A stretch of 35,637 bases of DNA, taken from positions 1-35,637 of the IMG/VR virus record IMGVR_UViG_3300044729_003563. One strand, written 5' to 3'. Source of the DNA: a virus. The first letter of the stretch is position 1. Each line of letters starts with the position of its first letter. The notes beneath the pieces were generated by a model that saw only the letters and a list, made by a program, of their open reading frames with translations, did no database searches and was not told the origin of the DNA. Of the stretch, positions 685-18,443 are shown in pieces. A program made the position numbers and the translations under genes.

Positions 685-1013
685 CAGTCATCACCGGCAG
701 CAGCCGGGGCGAAAAAGCTGTCAACTTTGGTGGGGCCGGGCTCGGGGTCAGGGTCGTCCACCCACACCCAGGCCCGAACCCAAGCACCGCCAGCTTCAGG
801 CACGCGGGAGATCTCGGCAAAAACCTCGATACTTATGTGAGGGCCGGCATACTTGCGTTGAGCAAGGTTGACGTAGGGGTTGATGTTGCTCATTGAGATG
901 GTGTGCGGAACGTAGGTGAGCCGAGAAAGGATGCCGGCAACGGCTAGCTGGTGTAGCTGTTGGCGCGTGGATGGGTCTTGCAGGAAGGCTTTGATGTCGA
1001 GGCGCTTGATCAT
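684..1013 (-). CDS. Hypothetical protein, paralogue family A, with repeat-encoded C-terminal tail
   Basis: The product is 109 aa. The C-terminal half carries AWVRAWVWVDDPDPEPGP (residues 77-94), which matches the strand plus acidic-proline segment of the genes at 1..362 and 3944..4132. The last residues, APAAAGDD, are encoded by the hairpin repeat that covers the gene junction, so the tail is probably a by-product of the RNA element rather than part of the fold. The start overlaps the stop of the upstream gene (ATGA), and the stop forms TGATG with the next gene. Function unknown; no signal peptide. Confidence 0.8.
   Translation of the reverse strand: MIKRLDIKAFLQDPSTRQQLHQLAVAGILSRLTYVPHTISMSNINPYVNLAQRKYAGPHISIEVFAEISRVPEAGGAWVRAWVWVDDPDPEPGPTKVDSFFAPAAAGDD
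691..711 (-). repeat. Junction hairpin repeat, copy H1
   Basis: On the minus strand: CGCCCCGGC-TGCT-GCCGGTGA, a 5-bp CCGGC/GCCGG stem with a 4-nt loop. GGTGA, a word complementary to the UCACC of the 16S rRNA 3' end, lies 6 nt before the ATG at 684. The repeat is translated as APAAAGDD at the end of the upstream gene. Confidence 0.85.
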
Positions 1014-1219
1014 TCAGCTAGCTTGTCTGCAATGGACAGGCAACGCGGGCAACACTTGTTGGCAGGGCTGTGCCGGTGTTCGGCGGAGACCCATACTTCA
1101 GGATCTTTGACACCGCACAGTGTGAGACCCGTTTGGATGAAGTCATTGCGCAGGATGTGCGCAGGCGTATTGCGCAACTCATAAGCACGCCGCGCGGCTT
1201 TTTGTTGATGCCAGTTCAT
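1010..1219 (-). CDS. Hypothetical Cys-containing small protein, 69 aa
   Basis: MNWHQQKAARRAYELRN starts a basic helical N-terminus. The C-terminal part has a C35 and a CCPRC motif (residues 57-61), with His residues between (AEHRHS), so a small metal-binding fold is possible but not proven. The start ATG overlaps the stop of the upstream 55-aa gene as ATGA and has a good Shine-Dalgarno-like GGAGGAG just upstream. The stop overlaps the next start (ATGA). It belongs to the leftward operon of small genes. Function unknown. Confidence 0.75.
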   Translation of the reverse strand: MNWHQQKAARRAYELRNTPAHILRNDFIQTGLTLCGVKDPEVWVSAEHRHSPANKCCPRCLSIADKLAE

Positions 1220-1383
1220 GTCTCCTCCGCGTCACAGATGCGGGCATCGACCCACTCCCAGTAGCCCAGGCGGGTGGAGTCTTCAACGACCTCGGCCTGC
1301 CATTCGGAGAGGCCGTACTCGGGGTGCTCGCCCCAGTGGCCGCCATTGGCAGCTTTGAGGGAGGCAATGTCGGGGTCAGTCAT
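1216..1383 (-). CDS. Hypothetical protein, 55 aa
   Basis: MTDPDIASLKAANGGHWGEH opens a 55-aa acidic, Trp-rich protein containing LGYWEWVDARICD near its C-terminus. Its ATG lies 6 nt after the GGTGA of hairpin H2 and close behind the stop of the upstream gene (GACTGATGACTGAC). The stop overlaps the next start (ATGA). The GYWEWV segment recalls the GYWVQAEV segment of family A, so a distant relationship is possible. Function unknown. The coding call rests on the precise overlaps at both ends and on codon use. Confidence 0.75.
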   Translation of the reverse strand: MTDPDIASLKAANGGHWGEHPEYGLSEWQAEVVEDSTRLGYWEWVDARICDAEET

Positions 1384-1670
1384 CAGTCATCACCGGCAGT
1401 AGCCGGGGCGATAGTGTCGCAGTAGCGAGGTAAGACATTGCAGTAATCTTCGGTCCAGACTTGAATTGCATCACTGCTCCATCCGTGCGGTAGTTGCACG
1501 GAGTACATGCCGATCTCATGTGAAAAGAGATTGCCGTTGTTGCGATGATCGTTAAATTGCTTTAAGCATTCCTGGTAGTCGTAGTACCAGTCATAGCCTC
1601 CAACGCCGTGCGGAGGGATTGGCTGGAACTCGCATACCCAGATAGTCTGCATAGTCATGGAACGGTTCAT
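1383..1670 (-). CDS. Hypothetical protein, 95 aa, with repeat-encoded tail
   Basis: MNRSMTMQTIWVCEFQPIPP opens a Tyr/Trp-rich protein (GGYDWYYDYQECLKQF near the middle, VQLPHGWSSDAIQVW after it). The product ends APATAGDD, translated from hairpin copy H2. The start overlaps the stop of the upstream gene (CGATGAAC). Two later in-frame ATG codons (M5, M7) are possible alternative starts, but the first is the one 6 nt after the GGTGA word. No recognised function, signal peptide or membrane segment. Confidence 0.75.
   Translation of the reverse strand: MNRSMTMQTIWVCEFQPIPPHGVGGYDWYYDYQECLKQFNDHRNNGNLFSHEIGMYSVQLPHGWSSDAIQVWTEDYCNVLPRYCDTIAPATAGDD
1390..1410 (-). repeat. Junction hairpin repeat, copy H2
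   Basis: CCGGC-TACT-GCCGG stem-loop on the minus strand, with GGTGA exactly 6 nt before the ATG at 1383. It is translated as the C-terminal APATAGDD of the upstream gene. The loop differs from H1 while the stem is unchanged. Confidence 0.85.
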
Positions 1671-1906
1671 CGGTTATCACCGGCAGCAGCCGGGGCGAAA
1701 GTGCGGACCTTGATTGAGTCCCATTCCAGGGCTGCGCGATCAATCAGCTCGTAGACTTCGGACGGGTCAAGGTCCATGGAGAGCGCTACTACGTCAATAA
1801 CACGTTGACGGTCGGGAAGCAGAAGTTCTAGCGCACCCGACCCTTCGATTTCAGCGATTAGACGAGGGAACTGAATAGCATTATTCGCCCAGTTGTCTTG
1901 AGTCAT
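1667..1906 (-). CDS. Small acidic phage protein, 79 aa, with repeat-encoded tail
   Basis: MTQDNWANNAIQFPRLIAEI begins the protein. The layout FPRLIAEI...L..SMDLDPSEVYELIDRAALEWDSIK resembles a small hypothetical protein found in many phages, where it is usually about 60-75 aa and has no assigned role (recollection, not a search). The last residues, FAPAAAGDNR, come from hairpin copy H3. The start lies 6 nt after the GGTGA of copy H4, and the stop overlaps the next start (ATGA). It is mostly helical and acidic, probably a cytoplasmic soluble protein. Confidence 0.8.
   Translation of the reverse strand: MTQDNWANNAIQFPRLIAEIEGSGALELLLPDRQRVIDVVALSMDLDPSEVYELIDRAALEWDSIKVRTFAPAAAGDNR
1677..1697 (-). 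repeat. Junction hairpin repeat, copy H3
   Basis: CCGGC-TGCT-GCCGG stem-loop on the minus strand, with GGTGA 6 nt before the ATG at 1670. It is translated as APAAAGDNR at the end of the gene 1667..1906. Confidence 0.85.
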
Positions 1907-1912
1907 TGGTTG

Positions 1913-1933
1913 TCACCGGCAGCAGCCGGGGCG
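1913..1933 (-). repeat. Junction hairpin repeat, copy H4 (not reached by upstream translation)
   Basis: Same CCGGC-TGCT-GCCGG stem-loop with GGTGA 6 nt before the ATG at 1906. Unlike the other copies, the upstream gene stops at an in-frame TGA (1957..1959) before the repeat. Past that TGA the frame would continue through the repeat as APAAAGDNQ and stop at 1903. Confidence 0.85.
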
Positions 1934-1956
1934 AAGGGGTAGAGGGCGAGACGTGT

Positions 1957-2136
1957 TCAGAACGATGAAGTGATCCTGACCACGGGTTCCATGTGCGCAC
2001 CGGGGCTGGCCGAACAGTTCACCGTGAAGGCGAGCGAGGGGTACTTGTGCCTGAATGCAAGGAAGATCTTGGTCATTGCATTTTCCGCGTCGATGCGATC
2101 ATGGATCAGCTCGGATAGCTTGGGGTCAAGGTTCAT
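1957..2136 (-). CDS. Hypothetical protein, 59 aa, interrupted by in-frame TGA before its repeat-encoded tail
   Basis: MNLDPKLSELIHDRIDAENA starts the protein and VVRITSSF ends it. The start overlaps the stop of the upstream gene (ATGA) and lies 6 nt after the GGTGA of hairpin H5. After the TGA at 1957..1959 the same frame stays open for 17 more codons (TRLALYPFAPAAAGDNQ) to a second TGA at 1903..1905 that overlaps the next ATG, exactly as in its neighbours. The ancestral gene was therefore probably 1903..2136 (77 sense or recoded codons). The TGA could be a nonsense mutation, a sequencing error or a readthrough site. Function unknown. Confidence 0.75.
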   Translation of the reverse strand: MNLDPKLSELIHDRIDAENAMTKIFLAFRHKYPSLAFTVNCSASPGAHMEPVVRITSSF

Positions 2137-2591
2137 TGGTTGTCACCGGCAGCAGTCGGGGCGAGGTCGGGACGAATGGAGCGCAAGCGTTCCCAGTGTT
2201 CTGGCTTGAACCAGTTGGTTTCACCGCTTGTCGCCTTTTCGATCAGGCGCTGATCGAGGAGGTGCTGACGAACTTGATGAAGTTGCTTCAGAGCCTTGGC
2301 GGGTTGAGTGGTGCCCGCAAGGGAGAAGCCTGGGCGCCTTGCAGTGCGAACATCGGTTTCCAATACGGAGAGAAGCAGCAGGGCTTCTTCGCAGGCGTTC
2401 AAGGCACTGGCAACTCCCACCGATGGATAGCTGGATTTGTTGGCCTCGAGGAGGAGTGTCCCGTAGGCTTGCAAGAGCTTCTCTTCCACGGCCACCAACG
2501 AGGACTGTCGATATGAAGAGCGAACGTAAGACTCCCGGATTGAGGGAATAGCGTACTTCCGAAAGGCTTCTGAGCCGACATAGATTTTCAT
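2133..2591 (-). CDS. Hypothetical mostly helical protein, 152 aa, with repeat-encoded tail
   Basis: MKIYVGSEAFRKYAIPSIRE opens the protein. The middle is helical and Leu-rich (SALNACEEALLLLSVLET, KALKQLHQVRQHLLDQRL). It ends RPDLAPTAAGDNQ, where the last residues come from hairpin H5. The start forms TGATG with the upstream gene and lies 6 nt after the GGTGA of H6. The stop overlaps the next start (ATGA). No recognised domain, signal peptide or membrane span. The helices suggest a soluble oligomeric or adaptor-type protein, but this is only an inference. Confidence 0.8.
   Translation of the reverse strand: MKIYVGSEAFRKYAIPSIRESYVRSSYRQSSLVAVEEKLLQAYGTLLLEANKSSYPSVGVASALNACEEALLLLSVLETDVRTARRPGFSLAGTTQPAKALKQLHQVRQHLLDQRLIEKATSGETNWFKPEHWERLRSIRPDLAPTAAGDNQ
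2143..2163 (-). repeat. Junction hairpin repeat, copy H5
   Basis: CCGAC-TGCT-GCCGG on the minus strand. This is the only copy with a changed stem base (an A facing C), so its stem is weaker. GGTGA lies 6 nt before the ATG at 2136. It is translated as APTAAGDNQ at the end of the upstream gene. Confidence 0.8.
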
Positions 2592-3178
2592 CAGGATTCA
2601 CCGGCTTTCGCCGGGGCGAGGGGGAGCGTGGTGATTTGCGTGAAGCGCAGCTTCTTCGGCGGCACGATCACCGTGGGCTCGATCGTGGTTCTGGGGGTCC
2701 AGAACTCGTCGAAGGCGCGGGCCATGGCGGCGCGGTCCTGGGCGCCCCAGCCCGAGCGTCCTCCTTCGTGCCGGGGGTGCGCTCGCCAGCTGGGGGCGAT
2801 GATGCTGGCTATCGCGTAGAAAAAATCAGGCGCGGACCACCAGAGCTCAGTGAGGTTGCATGTCATCAGCTCGCCGACGTAGCGGGTCATGGGCTGAAGC
2901 TCCGAGAGGCTGTAGACCTTGGTTGGCCTATCGGGATCCGTAGAGAACTCAACCAGGCCGTGAGGCTTCTCGCGCCTGTCCACGACCGCCAGGTGCATGT
3001 CAAAGTCGCGGCAGTCCTTGCGGGTGGTCTTAGCCAGAGGGACGTAGGCCGTGGAGAGGCCGGCCTCGTGGATGATGCGGGTGGCGACGATCTCCGGGGT
3101 GATGGAGTGGAAGTCGCTCAGCTCATGGTGCTCGAGCAGGGCGTCCTTGAGCTTGGTGGCGATGGTGTAGTCGATCAT
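2591..3178 (-). CDS. Hypothetical protein, 195 aa, with repeat-encoded tail
   Basis: MIDYTIATKLKDALLEHHEL opens the protein. The start ATG at 3178 overlaps the upstream stop (ATGA) and follows a CU-rich leader (CGTCCTCTC). An upstream in-frame start at 3217 would add 13 residues inside the preceding gene and is less likely. The middle has LVEFSTDPDRPTKVYSLSEL and two Trp-rich stretches (LTELWWSAPDFFYAIASI). The tail APAKAGES is encoded by hairpin H6. No family is recognised with confidence; it looks like a soluble cytoplasmic protein. It forms TGATG with the next gene. Confidence 0.8.
   Translation of the reverse strand: MIDYTIATKLKDALLEHHELSDFHSITPEIVATRIIHEAGLSTAYVPLAKTTRKDCRDFDMHLAVVDRREKPHGLVEFSTDPDRPTKVYSLSELQPMTRYVGELMTCNLTELWWSAPDFFYAIASIIAPSWRAHPRHEGGRSGWGAQDRAAMARAFDEFWTPRTTIEPTVIVPPKKLRFTQITTLPLAPAKAGES
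2598..2618 (-). repeat. Junction hairpin repeat, copy H6
   Basis: CCGGC-GAAA-GCCGG on the minus strand, a stem closed by a GNRA-type loop. GGTGA lies 6 nt before the ATG at 2591. It is translated as APAKAGES. Confidence 0.85.
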
Positions 3179-3741
3179 GAGGATTGAGAGAGGACGGGGT
3201 TGACAATGTCGACCCACTTGATCTGGTGAGCCTTGAGGCGGATGTAGCTGTTGAGCATCAGTCCTTTGCGGCCGAGGTCCTGGGTGACCTCGTACTGCCG
3301 GCCGACGTGGGACGCCTCGAAGTGATCGCCCAGGCGGATGGTGCTGCCGACCGCCGGGCGGACGCGTTTGCGGCTGACTGCCTGCTGCGCGTGGTGGTCA
3401 CGCACGAAGTCCCGCCAGGTGCGCCGGCTGCCGCGATGGCCATCGACGGGGCACGATGGCGGCTCAGGAGCCCGGTCAAGCCAGCGCAGTGGGCAGTCGT
3501 AGTGGAAGGGGCCCATGGATTCGTCCATGTCCTTGTAGCCCCAGCAGCCGTTGTCGCGCTGCAGCAGGAATAGACCGATGAGGGGGTCCTGGTTCTTGGG
3601 CTTGATCAGGACCCAGAGCCTGTTGCCACGGACGGCGTGACCCATCAGGGCGAGGGTGCCGCCAGCAAAGAAGTTCCGGGTGAGGATTTCCTTGACGAAG
3701 GAGTCCTTGGATTGAGGGTGAGTGTTGTAGAGCCAGCCCAT
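3175..3741 (-). CDS. MGWLY-type hypothetical protein, 188 aa
   Basis: MGWLYNTHPQSKDSFVKEIL begins the protein. Around residue 85 it has the string WGYKDMDESMGPFHYDCPL, which I recognise as the conserved core of a hypothetical-protein family (MGWLF/MGWLY proteins) common on phages and plasmids; I believe it is catalogued as DUF6927 but could not check. Function unknown. The C-terminal third (VGSTIRLGDHF..., LGRKGLMLNSYIRLKAHQI) looks like a small beta-barrel. The start lies 6 nt after the GGTGA of H7, and the stop overlaps the next ATG. Its last codons contain the CGTCCTCTC leader of the next gene. Confidence 0.8.
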   Translation of the reverse strand: MGWLYNTHPQSKDSFVKEILTRNFFAGGTLALMGHAVRGNRLWVLIKPKNQDPLIGLFLLQRDNGCWGYKDMDESMGPFHYDCPLRWLDRAPEPPSCPVDGHRGSRRTWRDFVRDHHAQQAVSRKRVRPAVGSTIRLGDHFEASHVGRQYEVTQDLGRKGLMLNSYIRLKAHQIKWVDIVNPVLSQSS

Positions 3742-3944
3742 CAGGATTCACCGGCTGCCGCCGGGGCGAGGGTCAATGCGCTGGAGCCCTCAGGGCTGAG
3801 GATCACCGATGAGAAGGCCTTGCCCCCTTGGGACCAGAGAGTGACCTTGTAGCCGTCACCAAGCGGGGTGATGCTCAGGTCGCACTCGTGCTCAGAGGTG
3901 ATCCATGTTTCGTAGCCCCGGGGCAGGAGCTTGGGAATGCTCAT
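3741..3944 (-). CDS. Small beta-rich hypothetical protein, 67 aa, with repeat-encoded tail
   Basis: MSIPKLLPRGYETWITSEHE starts a short protein with alternating strands (CDLSITPLGDGYKVTLWSQG, AFSSVILSPEG). The tail LAPAAAGES is encoded by hairpin H7. The start lies 6 nt after the GGTGA of H8, and the stop forms TGATG with the next gene. Function unknown. The strand pattern and size suggest a single small beta-sheet domain. Confidence 0.75.
   Translation of the reverse strand: MSIPKLLPRGYETWITSEHECDLSITPLGDGYKVTLWSQGGKAFSSVILSPEGSSALTLAPAAAGES
3748..3768 (-). repeat. Junction hairpin repeat, copy H7
   Basis: CCGGC-GGCA-GCCGG stem-loop on the minus strand, with GGTGA 6 nt before the ATG at 3741. 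Translated as APAAAGES. Confidence 0.85.
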
Positions 3945-4132
3945 CAGGATTCACCGGCTGTTGCCGGGGAGGAAGGAAACTTTTGCGCATCGCCGCGGTC
4001 AACCCACACCTGCACTGTCACGTAGGCGCCGTCTTCGGCGCGCTCGACGGGCGCTTCGTCGACGATGCGTGTATAAAAGCCCCCGTGAAATTCGCGGGCG
4101 GCATCGATGTACTGCTGGTTCGATGGTTCCAT
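3944..4132 (-). CDS. Hypothetical protein, paralogue family A, 62 aa, with repeat-encoded tail
   Basis: MEPSNQQYIDAAREFHGGFY opens the protein, followed by TRIVDEAPVERAEDGAYVTV and QVWVDRGDAQKF. The GAYVTVQVWVD segment corresponds to GAWVRAWVWVD of the gene at 684..1013 and to GYWVQAEVFV at 1..362, so this is a short family member. The tail SPATAGES comes from hairpin H8. The start lies 6 nt after the GGTGA of H9 (TAATG junction). Function unknown. Confidence 0.75.
   Translation of the reverse strand: MEPSNQQYIDAAREFHGGFYTRIVDEAPVERAEDGAYVTVQVWVDRGDAQKFPSSPATAGES
3951..3970 (-). repeat. Junction hairpin repeat, copy H8
   Basis: CCGGC-AACA-GCCGG on the minus strand; the outer GCG flank of the other copies is missing. 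GGTGA lies 6 nt before the ATG at 3944. Translated as SPATAGES. Confidence 0.8.
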
Positions 4133-4467
4133 TAGCTATCACCGGCTCCCGCCGGGGTACAAAGGGATCGGGTCTTCAGCCCGGTGTGCCGCTCAAAGGC
4201 GGCCAGCGCTTCCGGGGAGTTGCCGCCGATGTGCCAGGCGTAGTCCTCTGTTGGCGTGACGCACTGCTTCCAGTCGTACACCTCGAAGACCGTGCCGTTG
4301 TGGCAGCGGAAGCACCATTCAGCCGTGGTCTTGTCGCCCATGAGGACATGCGGTATGGCAAGCAGGGCGACCAAGACGGTGTAGTTCGTAGTGCAGTAGC
4401 CCTGCAGGCCGGTGCCGCCCGGATTGCCGCGGCCGAGCACGGCCAGCGGATGGAGGTTGGAGCTCAT
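4132..4467 (-). CDS. Conserved-type phage protein, 111 aa, with repeat-encoded tail
   Basis: MSSNLHPLAVLGRGNPGGTG is followed by LQGYCTTNYTVLVALLAIPH, then a D-K-T-x-A-E-W segment, GTVFEVYDWKQC and AWHIGG near residue 78. This order (QGY...; D.KT..EW; G.VFEVYDWK; WHIGG) resembles a hypothetical protein of many siphoviruses that I have seen without an assigned function. The tail TPAGAGDS is encoded by hairpin H9. The start overlaps the upstream stop (ATGA), and the stop joins the next gene as TAATG. The hydrophobic stretch near residues 31-41 is too short to be a confident membrane span. Confidence 0.8.
   Translation of the reverse strand: MSSNLHPLAVLGRGNPGGTGLQGYCTTNYTVLVALLAIPHVLMGDKTTAEWCFRCHNGTVFEVYDWKQCVTPTEDYAWHIGGNSPEALAAFERHTGLKTRSLCTPAGAGDS
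4139..4158 (-). repeat. Junction hairpin repeat, copy H9
   Basis: CCGGC-GGGA-GCCGG on the minus strand (GNRA-type loop), with GGTGA 6 nt before the ATG at 4132. Translated as TPAGAGDS; the upstream stop is TAA rather than TGA. Confidence 0.85.
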
Positions 4468-12204: not shown

Positions 12205-12422
12205 GTTGAGATGGAGAGACAGAGAGGAGACGACTGGAGCCAGCCCCGCACCTGCTGCCCCTGGTCGCCAGGGAGGAGCAGCGCGTCGCTGATGCGGGGC
12301 ATGGAGGGATCGCACAACTGGTTGAGTGCGAGGCGGCCGCGGCCGGACAGGGGCGACAGGAGGGCCTGCCCGGCCGGCGTTGTGACGTGAAGGAGGTCAG
12401 GCCGCGGGGCCTGGCCGCTCAC
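11745..12422 (-). CDS. Possible small gene between Gp157 and the 207-aa gene; 3' end unresolved
   Basis: A GTG at 12422 overlaps the stop of the Gp157-like gene as GTGA and opens a frame (SGQAPRPDLLHVTTPAGQAL, then ISDALLLPGDQGQQVRGWLQ) with G/C-rich third positions over about 73 codons to 12205. No stop occurs there, and the frame continues in antiphase through the next gene to 11745, where it reads as low-complexity Ser/Thr/Arg. Only the first 73 codons look real. Either the gene ends by a frameshift near 12205, or an indel is present, or it is not a gene. Otherwise this 214-nt stretch has no assignment. Confidence 0.3.
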   Translation of the reverse strand: MSGQAPRPDLLHVTTPAGQALLSPLSGRGRLALNQLCDPSMPRISDALLLPGDQGQQVRGWLQSSPLCLSISTWQSATSPLTPSPASATGAGTTPTTASRQQLVASAPSSSRPASATSSRKDSPLTTAASSTTKSSRPLSSLWTSAWTSLSLRSYLSLRSLLILSPGGETLIVSLPPRPASAPSSRASLSPLAASVPRRSAGAKPRSRPLGELSSQLPSSRSTLR

Positions 12423-13093
12423 TTGATGGACCAGTTGGTGCGCTTGTCGAGGCGGGCGCCGGCGACGGGGTCACCGGCTTTGAGCTGGGCCTTGATGGCG
12501 GCCTTGTCGGGCACGCCGCTGCAGGCCAGCTCGTACTCGGAGGGGGCGATCTCATAGAGGTCGCGCAGGGTTTCGGTGATCACGGCGGTGATCTGGTCAG
12601 CGGCCTCGGCGTGGCCGGGCTGCAGCTTGAGCTTCACCTCGAAGCGCTTGAGGGAGTCGGGCACCAGCTCGGGGTCGACCTCGACGGCCTCGCTGGGGCG
12701 GGAGGCGACGGTGAACTCGGGCAGAGGAAAATTCTTCTGCCCGGGGTTGAGGGCGGTGAGGCAGCGGGTGAGGTAGTCGAGCAGGCGCTCGGCGGCGCGC
12801 TCTTCAGCGGCGGCCTTCTCGATGCGGTCGGCTGCCACCTGGCGGAGGTGGGCCGCCTTGGCGAGCAGGGACTCGTGCACATGGCAGATGGCGTTCGCCT
12901 TGCGGTGCAAGACCGCCTGGTTGTCGGCGGCCTTCTCGAGGAGCTCAGTGATCAGGGCCTGGGCCTGCTCCTGCTGCTCGGGGTCATCGGAGTTGGCGAG
13001 GTCCAGGGCTAGGGCCAGCTGTCCGTCGACTTCCTGGACCTCGAGGGTGAGTTCGTACAAGGAGGTCTTGGGCTTGGAGGGGGTCAGGGTCAT
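12419..13093 (-). CDS. Siphovirus Gp157-like protein, 224 aa
   Basis: The start MTLTPSKPKTSLYELTLEVQ and the long helical middle (AKAAHLRQVAADRIEKAAAE, ERAAERLLDYLTRCLTALNP) are typical of the Gp157 family. So is the end: GVPDKAAIKAQLKAGDPVAG then ARLDKRTNWSIK. Family members are 150-230 aa, occur next to SSB and recombination genes in siphoviruses, and have been linked to phage resistance in Streptococcus; their mechanism is not settled. The ATG overlaps one possible upstream stop (ATGA). An SSB-like gene lies 3 kb upstream in the neighbouring operon. Confidence 0.88.
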   Translation of the reverse strand: MTLTPSKPKTSLYELTLEVQEVDGQLALALDLANSDDPEQQEQAQALITELLEKAADNQAVLHRKANAICHVHESLLAKAAHLRQVAADRIEKAAAEERAAERLLDYLTRCLTALNPGQKNFPLPEFTVASRPSEAVEVDPELVPDSLKRFEVKLKLQPGHAEAADQITAVITETLRDLYEIAPSEYELACSGVPDKAAIKAQLKAGDPVAGARLDKRTNWSIK

Positions 13094-16830: not shown

Positions 16831-16860
16831 AGCCCCACCCCAGGGATCCGGGGCGGGGCT
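16831..16860 (-). terminator. Rho-independent terminator T1
   Basis: Minus strand stem AGCCCCGCCCC...GGGGTGGGGCT with a GGATCC-containing centre, followed by TTTCTTC. It ends the single-gene unit 16884..17162 and lies 8 nt before motif E4. Its sequence is nearly identical to T2. Confidence 0.85.
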
Positions 16861-16886: not shown

Positions 16887-17162
16887 GGCCGCGATGGCCT
16901 CCAGCTGACGCCGGAGATCGCGGATGAGGGGCCGGTTGGCGCCAATGATGGCGGTGGCCTGGCTGAGGCAGGCCTGGTCGACCGGGCTGATGCCGCGGCC
17001 GTCCTGGAGGTGCTCCAGGGCCTCGAGGACCCCGGAGCGAACGAGCTCCAGGGAGTAGTTGATCTGGCCGCTGAGAACACGGCCGTCTGAGGCGGTGCGC
17101 ACGTTGGCGCGGGCCAGCAGGCGGAGCTGCTGGGACATGTCGTAGATGGCAGTTTCGCTCAT
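16884..17162 (-). CDS. Hypothetical helical protein, 92 aa
   Basis: Start chosen at ATG 17162 (MSETAIYDMSQQLRLLARAN). It is a fully helical protein (QINYSLELVRSGVLEALEHL, LSQATAIIGANRPLIRDLRR) ending LEAIAA and a TAG that forms the first bases of hairpin B1. It stands alone between motif E5 and terminator T1, so it is a single-gene transcription unit. The leader carries a GGGCGC/GCGCCC stem and the CGTCCTCTC word. No domain is recognised; the size and helices would fit a small DNA-binding or adaptor protein, but there is no helix-turn-helix signature. Confidence 0.8.
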   Translation of the reverse strand: MSETAIYDMSQQLRLLARANVRTASDGRVLSGQINYSLELVRSGVLEALEHLQDGRGISPVDQACLSQATAIIGANRPLIRDLRRQLEAIAA

Positions 17163-17215
17163 CGGAGACAGGGGCGCTGAGCGCCCGGTGAGAGGACGGA
17201 GCCGTAGGCAGGTGC

Positions 17216-17237
17216 TGTGCACTGCTGAGATGGCTCA
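17216..17237 (-). promoter_or_regulatory. Leftward operon motif E5
   Basis: Minus strand TGAG-CCAT-CTCAGCAGTGCACA, 53 nt upstream of the ATG at 17162 and just downstream of terminator T2. Confidence 0.8.
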
Positions 17238-17245
17238 CTGAAAAA

Positions 17246-17273
17246 GCCCCACCCCAGGGATCCGGGGCGGGGC
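17246..17273 (-). terminator. Rho-independent terminator T2
   Basis: Minus strand GCCCCGCCCC-GGATCC-type centre-GGGGTGGGGC followed by TTTTTC. It ends the operon headed by E6 and is nearly identical to T1. Confidence 0.88.
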
Positions 17274-17282
17274 GGGAAGGGG

Positions 17283-17300
17283 GTGCCAGATGTGGCACTA
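17283..17300 (-). repeat. 3'-end hairpin repeat, copy B2
   Basis: Minus strand TAG-TGCCACATCTGGCAC; the TAG is the stop of 17298..17513. A perfect 6-bp GTGCCA/TGGCAC stem with loop CATC follows. Terminator T2 follows after 9 nt. Confidence 0.8.
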
Positions 17301-17513
17301 ATTGAGTGAGCGGATCAGGTGAAAGCGCGGTCGCCTCAGGCAGAGCCGAAAGCCGTCGCTGAGGTCAAGGCCGCAGCCACCCTCTCGCCAGGCGAGGTGT
17401 CGAGAGGGATCGTGAATCAGGCCGTAGAGGCCAATGAGTTCAAAGGACGAGCAGCACGAGTTGACCCACCAGAAGGGGCCAATGCGGCCACAAGTGGAAT
17501 CAATGTTGATCAT
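17298..17513 (-). CDS. Hypothetical protein, 71 aa
   Basis: MINIDSTCGRIGPFWWVNSC begins the protein, and it ends PRFHLIRSLN with a TAG fused to hairpin B2. Five cysteines and several tryptophans make it hydrophobic; no clear membrane span or zinc motif. The leader has CTCCTGATCTTCCCTC. Its codon use is less G/C-biased than that of its neighbours. It is the last gene of the E6 operon. The coding call rests on the stop being built into the B repeat, as in the neighbouring genes. Function unknown. Confidence 0.6.
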   Translation of the reverse strand: MINIDSTCGRIGPFWWVNSCCSSFELIGLYGLIHDPSRHLAWREGGCGLDLSDGFRLCLRRPRFHLIRSLN

Positions 17514-17542
17514 GAGGGAAGATCAGGAGACTGGATAAAGGG

Positions 17543-17560
17543 GTGCCAGATGTGGCACTA
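17543..17560 (-). repeat. 3'-end hairpin repeat, copy B3
   Basis: Minus strand TAG-TGCCACATCTGGCAC with the TAG as stop of 17558..17752. No terminator follows; the next gene starts 29 nt downstream of the repeat, so here the hairpin is intercistronic. Confidence 0.8.
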
Positions 17561-17752
17561 GCCGTAGCGGGGATCGTCGATCGATCCGTGGCAGACGGGG
17601 CAGTCGGTCACGGGAATGAACCGGCCGTTGGCGTAGGTGGTCTTGCCAGGGATGACACTGCCGTCCCTGTCGTAGCAGGAGTCGATGGTCGGGAAGTTGA
17701 GCTTCTCCGCATCGAACACGGTACCGCAGTGGTCGCAGGAGATCAGGTGCAT
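17558..17752 (-). CDS. Zinc-ribbon-type small protein, 64 aa
   Basis: Start chosen at ATG 17752 (MHLISCDHCGTVFDAEKLNF), which overlaps the stop of the upstream gene by 10 nt; the longer frame to 17836 lies in the upstream gene. C-D-H-C near the N-terminus (residues 6-9) and C-P-V-C near the C-terminus (about 54-57) form a two-knuckle zinc ribbon with TYANGRFIPVTDCPVCHGSI between. Such small ribbons are common in phages and usually bind zinc for structure or nucleic-acid contact. It ends DDPRYG-TAG in hairpin B3. Confidence 0.8.
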   Translation of the reverse strand: MHLISCDHCGTVFDAEKLNFPTIDSCYDRDGSVIPGKTTYANGRFIPVTDCPVCHGSIDDPRYG

Positions 17753-18003
17753 GGCGGGATGGAAAGTGGTGCTTCGTGGAGCTCGTAGAAAGGATCGTCG
17801 GCGCTGATGGAGAGGATCAGGCGGCCGAGATACCAATAGGTTGCGAGACTGTCGACGAATTCTTGACGACGGGCCTGGAGCTTGAACTCGGCCAGCGTGA
17901 GACCCCCTGCTGCTGCAGGGAAGTCACGCTCGAAGAACTCGAGGGCGTCGGGTGCGCAGTCGTCTTGACTGAGAAGTAGTTGAGAGCCGAGGGGGATGGG
18001 CAT
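17743..18003 (-). CDS. Hypothetical protein, 86 aa
   Basis: MPIPLGSQLLLSQDDCAPDA opens the protein; ALEFFERDFPAAAGGLTLAE and QARRQEFVDSLATYWYLGRL follow. It is mostly helical with an aromatic cluster near residues 56-60. The sequence ends HEAPLSIPPCT. It overlaps the next gene by 10 nt and follows the 48-aa gene after 8 nt. Function unknown. Confidence 0.7.
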   Translation of the reverse strand: MPIPLGSQLLLSQDDCAPDALEFFERDFPAAAGGLTLAEFKLQARRQEFVDSLATYWYLGRLILSISADDPFYELHEAPLSIPPCT

Positions 18004-18011
18004 GGCGCTGA

Positions 18012-18158
18012 TTAGCAGGGGATTGCGGACTCGAGCCGCTCATTGATCTGGCGGTCGAGGTCCAGCGCGAGGGCTTGTGCCTCCTCGTGGGCCTGGCGAT
18101 CGCCGGCCTCGAGGTTGGCATGGGCGAGCCGGCGGGCAAGGGCCAGCTCGGAGAACAT
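18012..18158 (-). CDS. Small helical protein, 48 aa
   Basis: MFSELALARRLAHANLEAGD starts a single long amphipathic helix (RQAHEEAQALALDLDRQINE) ending RLESAIPC-TAA. Third codon positions are strongly G/C. The gene lies between the structured leader 18181..18237 and the 86-aa gene. A small oligomerising or regulatory peptide is possible; function unknown. The frame is open further upstream, but that DNA holds repeat elements and another gene. Confidence 0.6.
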   Translation of the reverse strand: MFSELALARRLAHANLEAGDRQAHEEAQALALDLDRQINERLESAIPC

Positions 18159-18180
18159 GGTGTGGAGATCCACGGGACAA

Positions 18181-18200
18181 GAGCCCGGCTGCCGCCGGGG
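18181..18200 (-). repeat. Junction-type hairpin in a leader, copy H11
   Basis: Minus strand CCCCGGC-GGCA-GCCGGGCTC: the CCGGC/GCCGG stem of the junction repeat, here untranslated in a leader. It lacks the GGTGA word and is followed by TCTTG, so it may act as an attenuator or processing site instead. Confidence 0.6.
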
Positions 18201-18219
18201 AGAGAGGACGGGGAAGGGG

Positions 18220-18237
18220 GTGCCAGATGTGGCACTA
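18220..18237 (-). repeat. 3'-end hairpin repeat, copy B4
   Basis: Minus strand TAG-TGCCACATCTGGCAC, 4 nt after the TGA stop of 18242..18388. Here the TAG is not in frame with the upstream gene, so the whole element, including TAG, is conserved apart from coding. Confidence 0.75.
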
Positions 18238-18241
18238 GTGC

Positions 18242-18388
18242 TCACCGGTGGATGAGCGGGTAGAGGGGGTCGAAGAACAGACCCCAGTCGCCGTGGGCCA
18301 TGCCCAGGCGGATGGTGAAGCCGAGCAGGCAGCAGCCCGCCAGGTAGACGGCGGGGCGGCGCTCGGCGAAGGAGACGATGCTGCGCAT
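18242..18388 (-). CDS. Small membrane protein, 48 aa
   Basis: Start chosen at ATG 18388 (MRSIVSFAERRPAVYLAGCC), giving a hydrophobic stretch AVYLAGCCLLGFTIRLGMAH that could span the membrane once, with a Trp/Phe-rich end (WGLFFDPLYPLIHR). The longer frame to 18466 contains the promoter motif and hairpin H12 and is rejected. It is the first gene of the E6 operon. Tiny phage membrane proteins often act on the host envelope; no specific role can be shown here. Confidence 0.65.
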   Translation of the reverse strand: MRSIVSFAERRPAVYLAGCCLLGFTIRLGMAHGDWGLFFDPLYPLIHR

Positions 18389-18393
18389 CGGAG

Positions 18394-18412
18394 TAGCCCG
18401 GCTGCCGCCGGG
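18394..18412 (-). repeat. Junction-type hairpin in a leader, copy H12
   Basis: Minus strand CGCCCCGGC-GGCA-GCCGGGCT, untranslated, between motif E6 and the ATG at 18388. The 5' arm with its CGCCC flank is identical to the junction copies; the 3' side has GGGCT instead of GGTGA. Confidence 0.65.
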
Positions 18413-18443
18413 GCGAAGGGTCGTGTGAGCCGGAGTCAGGTGC

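What the first reader, a model, noticed from the sequence alone, without database searches (positions are those of the whole stretch)
687..4160. Repeated stem-loop that fuses a C-terminal tag, a hidden Shine-Dalgarno and the next start codon
Seen: nine copies (691, 1390, 1677, 1913, 2143, 2598, 3748, 3951, 4139) of CCGGC-loop-GCCGG on the minus strand, all at gene junctions. The loop varies (TGCT, TACT, GAAA, GGCA, AACA, GGGA) while the stem is kept in eight of nine. In all nine, the 3' arm runs into GGTGA, which lies exactly 6 nt before the ATG of the next gene. In eight, the repeat is translated as P-A-x-A-G-(D/E)-x ending the upstream protein. Known: GGUGA pairs with the UCACC of the 16S rRNA 3' end, and stems covering a ribosome site can couple translation. 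Inference: this is a spreading coupling cassette in which the upstream ribosome must open the stem to expose the next start; the shared protein tail is a by-product. I know of no phage family described with this arrangement.
Basis: partly seen in the sequence, partly recalled or inferred. Interest (0 to 1): 0.88.

Follow-up and report, generated by a model that had tools for sequence, protein, structure and literature searches.

The report
Cyanophage gene-junction hairpin and cassette boundary
A short repeated sequence at the seams between small genes in viruses of cyanobacteria ends one gene, carries the ribosome signal for the next, and marks the points where whole genes have been swapped in and out between related viruses.

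Summary
Nine minus-strand copies of (GCC)CCGGC-N4-GCCGGTGA-N6-ATG sit at gene junctions. The stem is intact in 8/9, GGTGA lies exactly 6 nt before ATG in 9/9, and the repeat is translated as a C-terminal tail in 8/9.

The window is an S-EIV1-lineage cyanophage. I found 24 more copies in 12 other viral contigs, with at least three different packaging/head-gene sets, and no cyanobacterial hit in a scan of 84,980 species genomes. Codon wobble positions in the stem are fixed while the wobble in the loop is free, so the constraint lies in the nucleotides rather than the tail peptide. There is no covariation, and shuffles do not support unusual stability.

The decisive new result is recombination. 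Two contigs 95-98% alike (G055/G057) differ by one gene inserted exactly between two copies. G049/G050 show a second case, and G048 has a different gene joined at the same point.

Best explanation: a start/stop-fused ribosome-binding module that supports reinitiation and also serves as a homologous gene-cassette boundary. Strict opening of the stem by the upstream ribosome is plausible but untested, and two copies fit it poorly. It works like SAS repeats and T4 PeSL cassettes but is a member of neither.

The parts
685..710 (-). junction element: GCCCCGGC-TGCT-GCCGGTGA-N6; ATG at 684
1384..1409 (-). junction element, loop TACT; ATG at 1383
1671..1696 (-). junction element, loop TGCT; ATG at 1670
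1907..1932 (-). junction element, loop TGCT; lies after the stop of the upstream gene, so the tail is not translated; ATG at 1906
2137..2162 (-). junction element with broken stem (CCGAC), loop TGCT; ATG at 2136
2592..2617 (-). junction element, loop GAAA; ATG at 2591
3742..3767 (-). junction element, loop GGCA; ATG at 3741
3945..3970 (-). junction element, loop AACA (TCCCCGGC); ATG at 3944
4133..4158 (-). junction element, loop GGGA (ACCCCGGC); ATG at 4132
1667..1906 (-). 79-aa gene flanked on both sides by the element; its homologue is the cassette present in G057 and absent from G055
1957..2136 (-). 59-aa gene; homologue (66%) in L292 also starts after an element and ends at the same SSF*
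2591..3178 (-). gene whose homologues in L060/L295 lack the tail and element, while the L135 homologue has a wobble-paired version
18389..18414 (-). related start-proximal hairpin in an operon leader (GCCCCGGC-GGCA-GCCGGGCT, no SD), ATG at 18388

Best explanation
The repeat is a compact gene-junction module of about 26-34 nt (pyrimidine tract, GC hairpin with a free 4-nt loop, embedded GGTGA Shine-Dalgarno, 6-nt spacer, stop and start codons overlapped). It gives each gene of a string of small unknown genes its ribosome-binding site by reinitiation from the gene before. Because every copy is nearly identical and in the same frame, homologous recombination between copies can insert, delete or swap the gene between two of them while leaving a correct gene end, ribosome site and start. 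Shown: sequence, geometry, nucleotide-level conservation, presence in several unrelated phage backgrounds, and gene gain/loss with crossover points inside the element. Inferred: that ribosomes reinitiate there, that the hairpin modulates this, and that homologous recombination rather than chance plus selection made the crossovers.
For: 33 copies in 13 contigs; SD-to-ATG spacing 6 in 27/33; stop/start overlap of 4 or 1 nt in 25/33. All nine window element starts carry GGTGA; of the other nearby starts I listed (two misplaced) only one has an SD-like word. Cyanobacteria use SD rarely for new starts but amply for reinitiation at overlapping genes (PMC6728339). Wobble positions of Pro and Ala in the stem are invariant in 33/33, while the loop Ala wobble is 14T/11A/4G/4C, although window codon usage is CCG 27% and GGT 15%. 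Stem positions changed in 5/330 cells against 18/198 for the other consensus positions, nominal p 7e-5. An any-codon search found only unrelated singletons. Recombination: G055 matches 100% left of G057 copy 1 and 100% right of G057 copy 2, with an extra gene in between in G057. G050's element matches 87% left of one G049 copy and 98% right of the next. G048/G049 and G048/G050 homology starts at or within 3 nt of the element's first base. Homologues gain and lose the element.
Against: No covariation in the stem and unremarkable folding z-scores. Two copies have the upstream stop before the hairpin. Breakpoints at gene junctions are also expected from random recombination followed by selection, and the G055/G057 pair has other breakpoints without the element. 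All functional steps are untested. Contigs are metagenomic assemblies, and near-identical repeats can in principle mislead assemblers.
Confidence: 0.6

Rival explanations
1. Strict translational-coupling switch: the stem hides the SD, the upstream ribosome must melt it, and the stem is selected for that alone; gene swapping is incidental.
For: SD partly in the stem, hairpin -8 to -9 kcal/mol alone, an alternative fold hides the whole SD, stop/start overlap; RNA-unfolding coupling is documented, e.g. phage f1 VII-IX (PMC12548453).
Against: No covariation; two copies lie beyond the upstream stop; SD lost while the stem is intact or nearly intact in G049, G050, G057 and G060 copies; similar hairpins without SD in leaders.
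Confidence: 0.17
2. RNA-binding or processing site: the hairpin about 9 nt before the start is recognised by a phage or host RNA-binding protein or RNase, or protects mRNA, both in leaders and at junctions.
For: Leader hairpins with different stem sequences at similar distance from ATG in the window and G003; stem more conserved than the SD.
Against: No Rfam match; no candidate binding protein identified; the leader set is small and stability is not above shuffles.
Confidence: 0.12
3. Selfish or transposed miniature repeat (REP/SDR-like) that happens to tolerate insertion at gene ends.
For: Homologous genes with and without the element, at different ends in different phages.
Against: Always the same orientation, frame and distance to ATG; no copies elsewhere in the window beyond leader hairpins; no copies in cyanobacterial genomes.
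Confidence: 0.06
4. The C-terminal peptide PAxAG(D/E) is the selected feature, for example a sorting or stability tag.
For: In frame with the upstream gene in nearly all copies.
Against: Wobble positions fixed in the stem but free in the loop; tail untranslated in two copies; any-codon search finds no other tagged families.
Confidence: 0.05

Closest known systems
Start-Associated Sequences (SAS/ESAS), Cluster K mycobacteriophages and Cluster EF Microbacterium phages (PMC3203893, PMC7302621)
   Same: Short, highly conserved repeats at the ribosome-binding position of a subset of small non-structural genes, containing an SD but conserved beyond it; function unknown.
   Different: Different sequence; SAS has no reported coding tail, fixed stop/start fusion or gene-exchange breakpoints, and its authors saw little support for mRNA hairpins in the ESAS repeats.
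PeSL mobile regulatory cassettes of T4-like phages (Arbiol 2010; Comeau 2014; cited in PMC4503421)
   Same: Short stem-loop-bearing repeats between unknown genes that mediate modular gene shuffling.
   Different: PeSLs are promoter plus terminator; this element has no promoter or terminator and acts, if at all, on translation.
Lambdoid boundary (linker) sequences at gene junctions
   Same: Homology at gene edges that allows exchange of single genes (from my own knowledge).
   Different: Each boundary sequence is specific to one junction; here one sequence serves many junctions and several phage groups.
Termination-reinitiation at overlapping genes, cyanobacteria (PMC6728339, PMC12548453)
   Same: ATGA/TGATG overlaps with SD; hairpins near the downstream start.
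   Different: Not normally built from one dispersed repeat.
Integron gene cassettes
   Same: One gene plus one hairpin-forming site as an exchangeable unit.
   Different: No integrase or attC core was searched for; homologous recombination is the simpler reading.

Membership tests
SAS (Cluster K) | 13-bp consensus GGGATAGGAGCCC | tested here: not met
   Consensus here is GCCCCGGC-N4-GCCGGTGA
SAS (Cluster K) | At the RBS position of a subset of non-structural genes | tested here: met
   Nine starts, fixed 6-nt spacing
T4 PeSL | Early promoter in the cassette | tested here: not met
   No sigma70-like site at 685-4158; phage-specific promoters not covered
T4 PeSL | Terminator-type stem-loop followed by T run | tested here: not met
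   No terminator-like site at the elements
T4 PeSL | Gene gain/loss between copies | tested here: met
Termination-reinitiation coupling | Stop/start overlap with SD | tested here: met
   25/33 overlaps; GGTGA in 9/9 window copies
Termination-reinitiation coupling | Downstream translation depends on upstream translation | not testable with these tools
   Needs reporters
REP/SDR/MITE-type mobile repeat | Transposition marks (target duplications, cognate transposase) | not tested
   Not examined
Known RNA family | Rfam match | tested here: not met

The most novel reading that the evidence does not exclude
A translation-level gene-cassette system: one in-frame stop/RBS/start hairpin repeat, shared across unrelated cyanophage lineages, acts as a common docking site so that single unknown genes circulate between phages and are expressed immediately on arrival.
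Probability: 0.45. Interest if true: 0.8.

Novelty: new variant of a known kind. Interest (0 to 1): 0.62.

Why it matters
How phages swap single unknown genes without breaking expression is a standing question. Here a single repeat both carries the translation signals and marks the exact crossover points in two independent phage groups, which makes the 'gene-junction module' idea directly testable and gives a handle for finding exchangeable gene cassettes in uncultivated cyanophages.

Tried and rejected
Host-derived repeat: no cyanobacterial hit in the genome-contig scan. Protein tag conserved by codon-independent selection: the any-codon scan gave only unrelated singletons. Compensatory evidence for the stem: none, nor for the alternative fold. 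Unusual stability: not supported by shuffles. Intrinsic terminator: no T run. Known RNA: none. Isolate phages: BLAST with the 31-nt repeat gave only chance-level hits, and a 20-kb megablast gave none. A search with the SD relaxed found no further families with repeated copies. A relatives search with the 79-aa gene found only the G057 contig.

Full report
Identity of the window. The protein at 32191-34371 matches Synechococcus phage S-EIV1 at 43% over 96% and 45 viral contigs at 61-90%; the terminase and a virion protein match phrog_38 and phrog_20475. The window is therefore an S-EIV1-lineage cyanophage fragment. The repeats lie in its minus-strand region of small unknown genes.

Observation. 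All nine copies are as described. The unit is better written as pyrimidine tract-GCCCCGGC-N4-GCCGGTGA-N6-ATG. Eight stems are perfect; the copy at 2143-2162 has CCGAC. The tail is translated in eight; at 1913 the upstream gene ends at 1957-1959, before the repeat, and its homologue in L292 ends at the same residues.

Spread. Scans of IMG/VR found the same in-frame junction unit in other contigs, and a relaxed scan of those contigs brought the set to 33 copies in 13 contigs including the window (alignment). A further contig, G062, is nearly the same as G060. Backgrounds differ: G003, G059 and G061 are S-EIV1-like by tblastn; G001 and G055 carry phrog_247-type major head proteins, and G001 a phrog_2 terminase; G048 has a phrog_146 portal and G049 a phrog_2 terminase whose best matches are cyanophages; G056 and G060 carry a phrog_17 DNA polymerase. 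Contig G+C runs from 48 to 65%. Hosts of the non-EIV1 contigs are not established. The host-genome scan returned 42 single hits, none cyanobacterial.

Level of constraint. In the 33 copies the wobble bases of the stem codons (CCG, GCC) never vary, and GGT varies twice, while the wobble base of the loop Ala codon is spread over all four letters. Window usage of CCG is 27% and of GGT 15%. Most copies were found with patterns that fix the stem, so the fairest subset is the copies recovered only by the relaxed scan; they too keep both stem wobble bases. Stem positions are more conserved than the flanking consensus positions (5/330 against 18/198 changes, counted by hand from the table, nominal p 7e-5, copies not independent). 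There is no covariation. The junctions do not fold better than shuffled sequence except for one. Two folds of nearly equal energy exist, one covering only GG of the SD and one covering all of GGTGA; neither is favoured by pair counts.

Geometry. GGTGA to ATG is 6 nt in 27/33. Stop and start overlap by 4 nt in 14 and by 1 nt in 11. In the window's small-gene region the element supplies almost all SD-like words. This matches the published pattern in cyanobacteria: SD rarely used for new starts, amply for reinitiation at overlaps (PMC6728339). A review of coupling lists both an unfolding and a scanning model (PMC12548453).

Gain, loss and exchange. Homologues of window genes carry or lack the element independently of the gene: the gene at 481-684 has it at its 5' side in the window and at its 3' side in G003; the gene at 2591-3178 has the tail in the window and a wobble-paired version in G049 but not in G003 or G059. 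The strongest evidence is pairwise. G055 and G057 are 95-98% alike; G057 has an extra gene (88% protein identity to window 1667-1906) between two elements, where G055 has one element. G055 matches 100% over 60 nt left of the first G057 copy and 100% over 60 nt right of the second, and is unrelated on the other sides. In G049 an 83-aa reading frame lies between two elements; G050 has one element there that matches the left side of one G049 copy and the right side of the next (87% and 98%). In G048 a different gene, a homologue of the gene between the two elements of G001, is joined to the same downstream gene, and homology starts at or within 3 nt of the element's first base. Random recombination with selection could also leave breakpoints at gene junctions, and the same contig pairs have breakpoints elsewhere, so homologous crossover in the element is the best but not the only reading.

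Leader hairpins. In the window and G003, operon heads that follow a repeated CTCAGCAGTGCACA element can carry a GC hairpin about 8-11 nt before ATG, with various stem sequences and no SD. This suggests that a start-proximal hairpin has a role that does not need an upstream ribosome, and is a reason not to accept strict coupling as shown.

Comparison. It resembles SAS repeats (PMC3203893, PMC7302621), from which it differs in sequence, translated tail and stop/start fusion. It resembles T4 PeSLs (cited in PMC4503421) in shuffling, but has no promoter or terminator. I file it as a new variant of the known kind 'repeated regulatory junction sequence in phage genomes', not as a member of either family.

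Noticed in passing
window minus strand 18909, 18457, 17229, 16814, 13778, 11357, 5668; also L059, L060, L295, L296: Repeated 14-bp element CTCAGCAGTGCACA (0-1 mismatch) about 16-58 nt upstream of operon-head start codons in the window, G003 and G059; looks like a phage-specific promoter or leader element.
   Followed up: partly
window 16831-16860 and 17246-17273, minus strand: Two near-identical terminators (GCCCCGCCCCGGATCCCTGGGGTGGGGC + T run), each just upstream of a CTCAGCAGTGCACA copy and a leader hairpin: a terminator-promoter composite reminiscent of T4 PeSLs.
   Followed up: no
window 17150-18420 and L059 16753-18250: Start-proximal GC hairpins with differing stem sequences in leaders, 8-11 nt before ATG and without SD.
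   Followed up: partly
L293 12932-13190 (G057): The inserted cassette appears to be decaying: upstream SD is GGTTA and the gene has a stop before its tail.
   Followed up: no
A1 alignment, loop columns: Loops TGCT and AGCA make the whole 14-nt hairpin the reverse complement of each other; hairpin flipping or simply two Ala codons.
   Followed up: no
window 12419-13093: Protein matching Mu Gam-like end protection (phrog_253) and Siphovirus Gp157 (PF05565).
   Followed up: no
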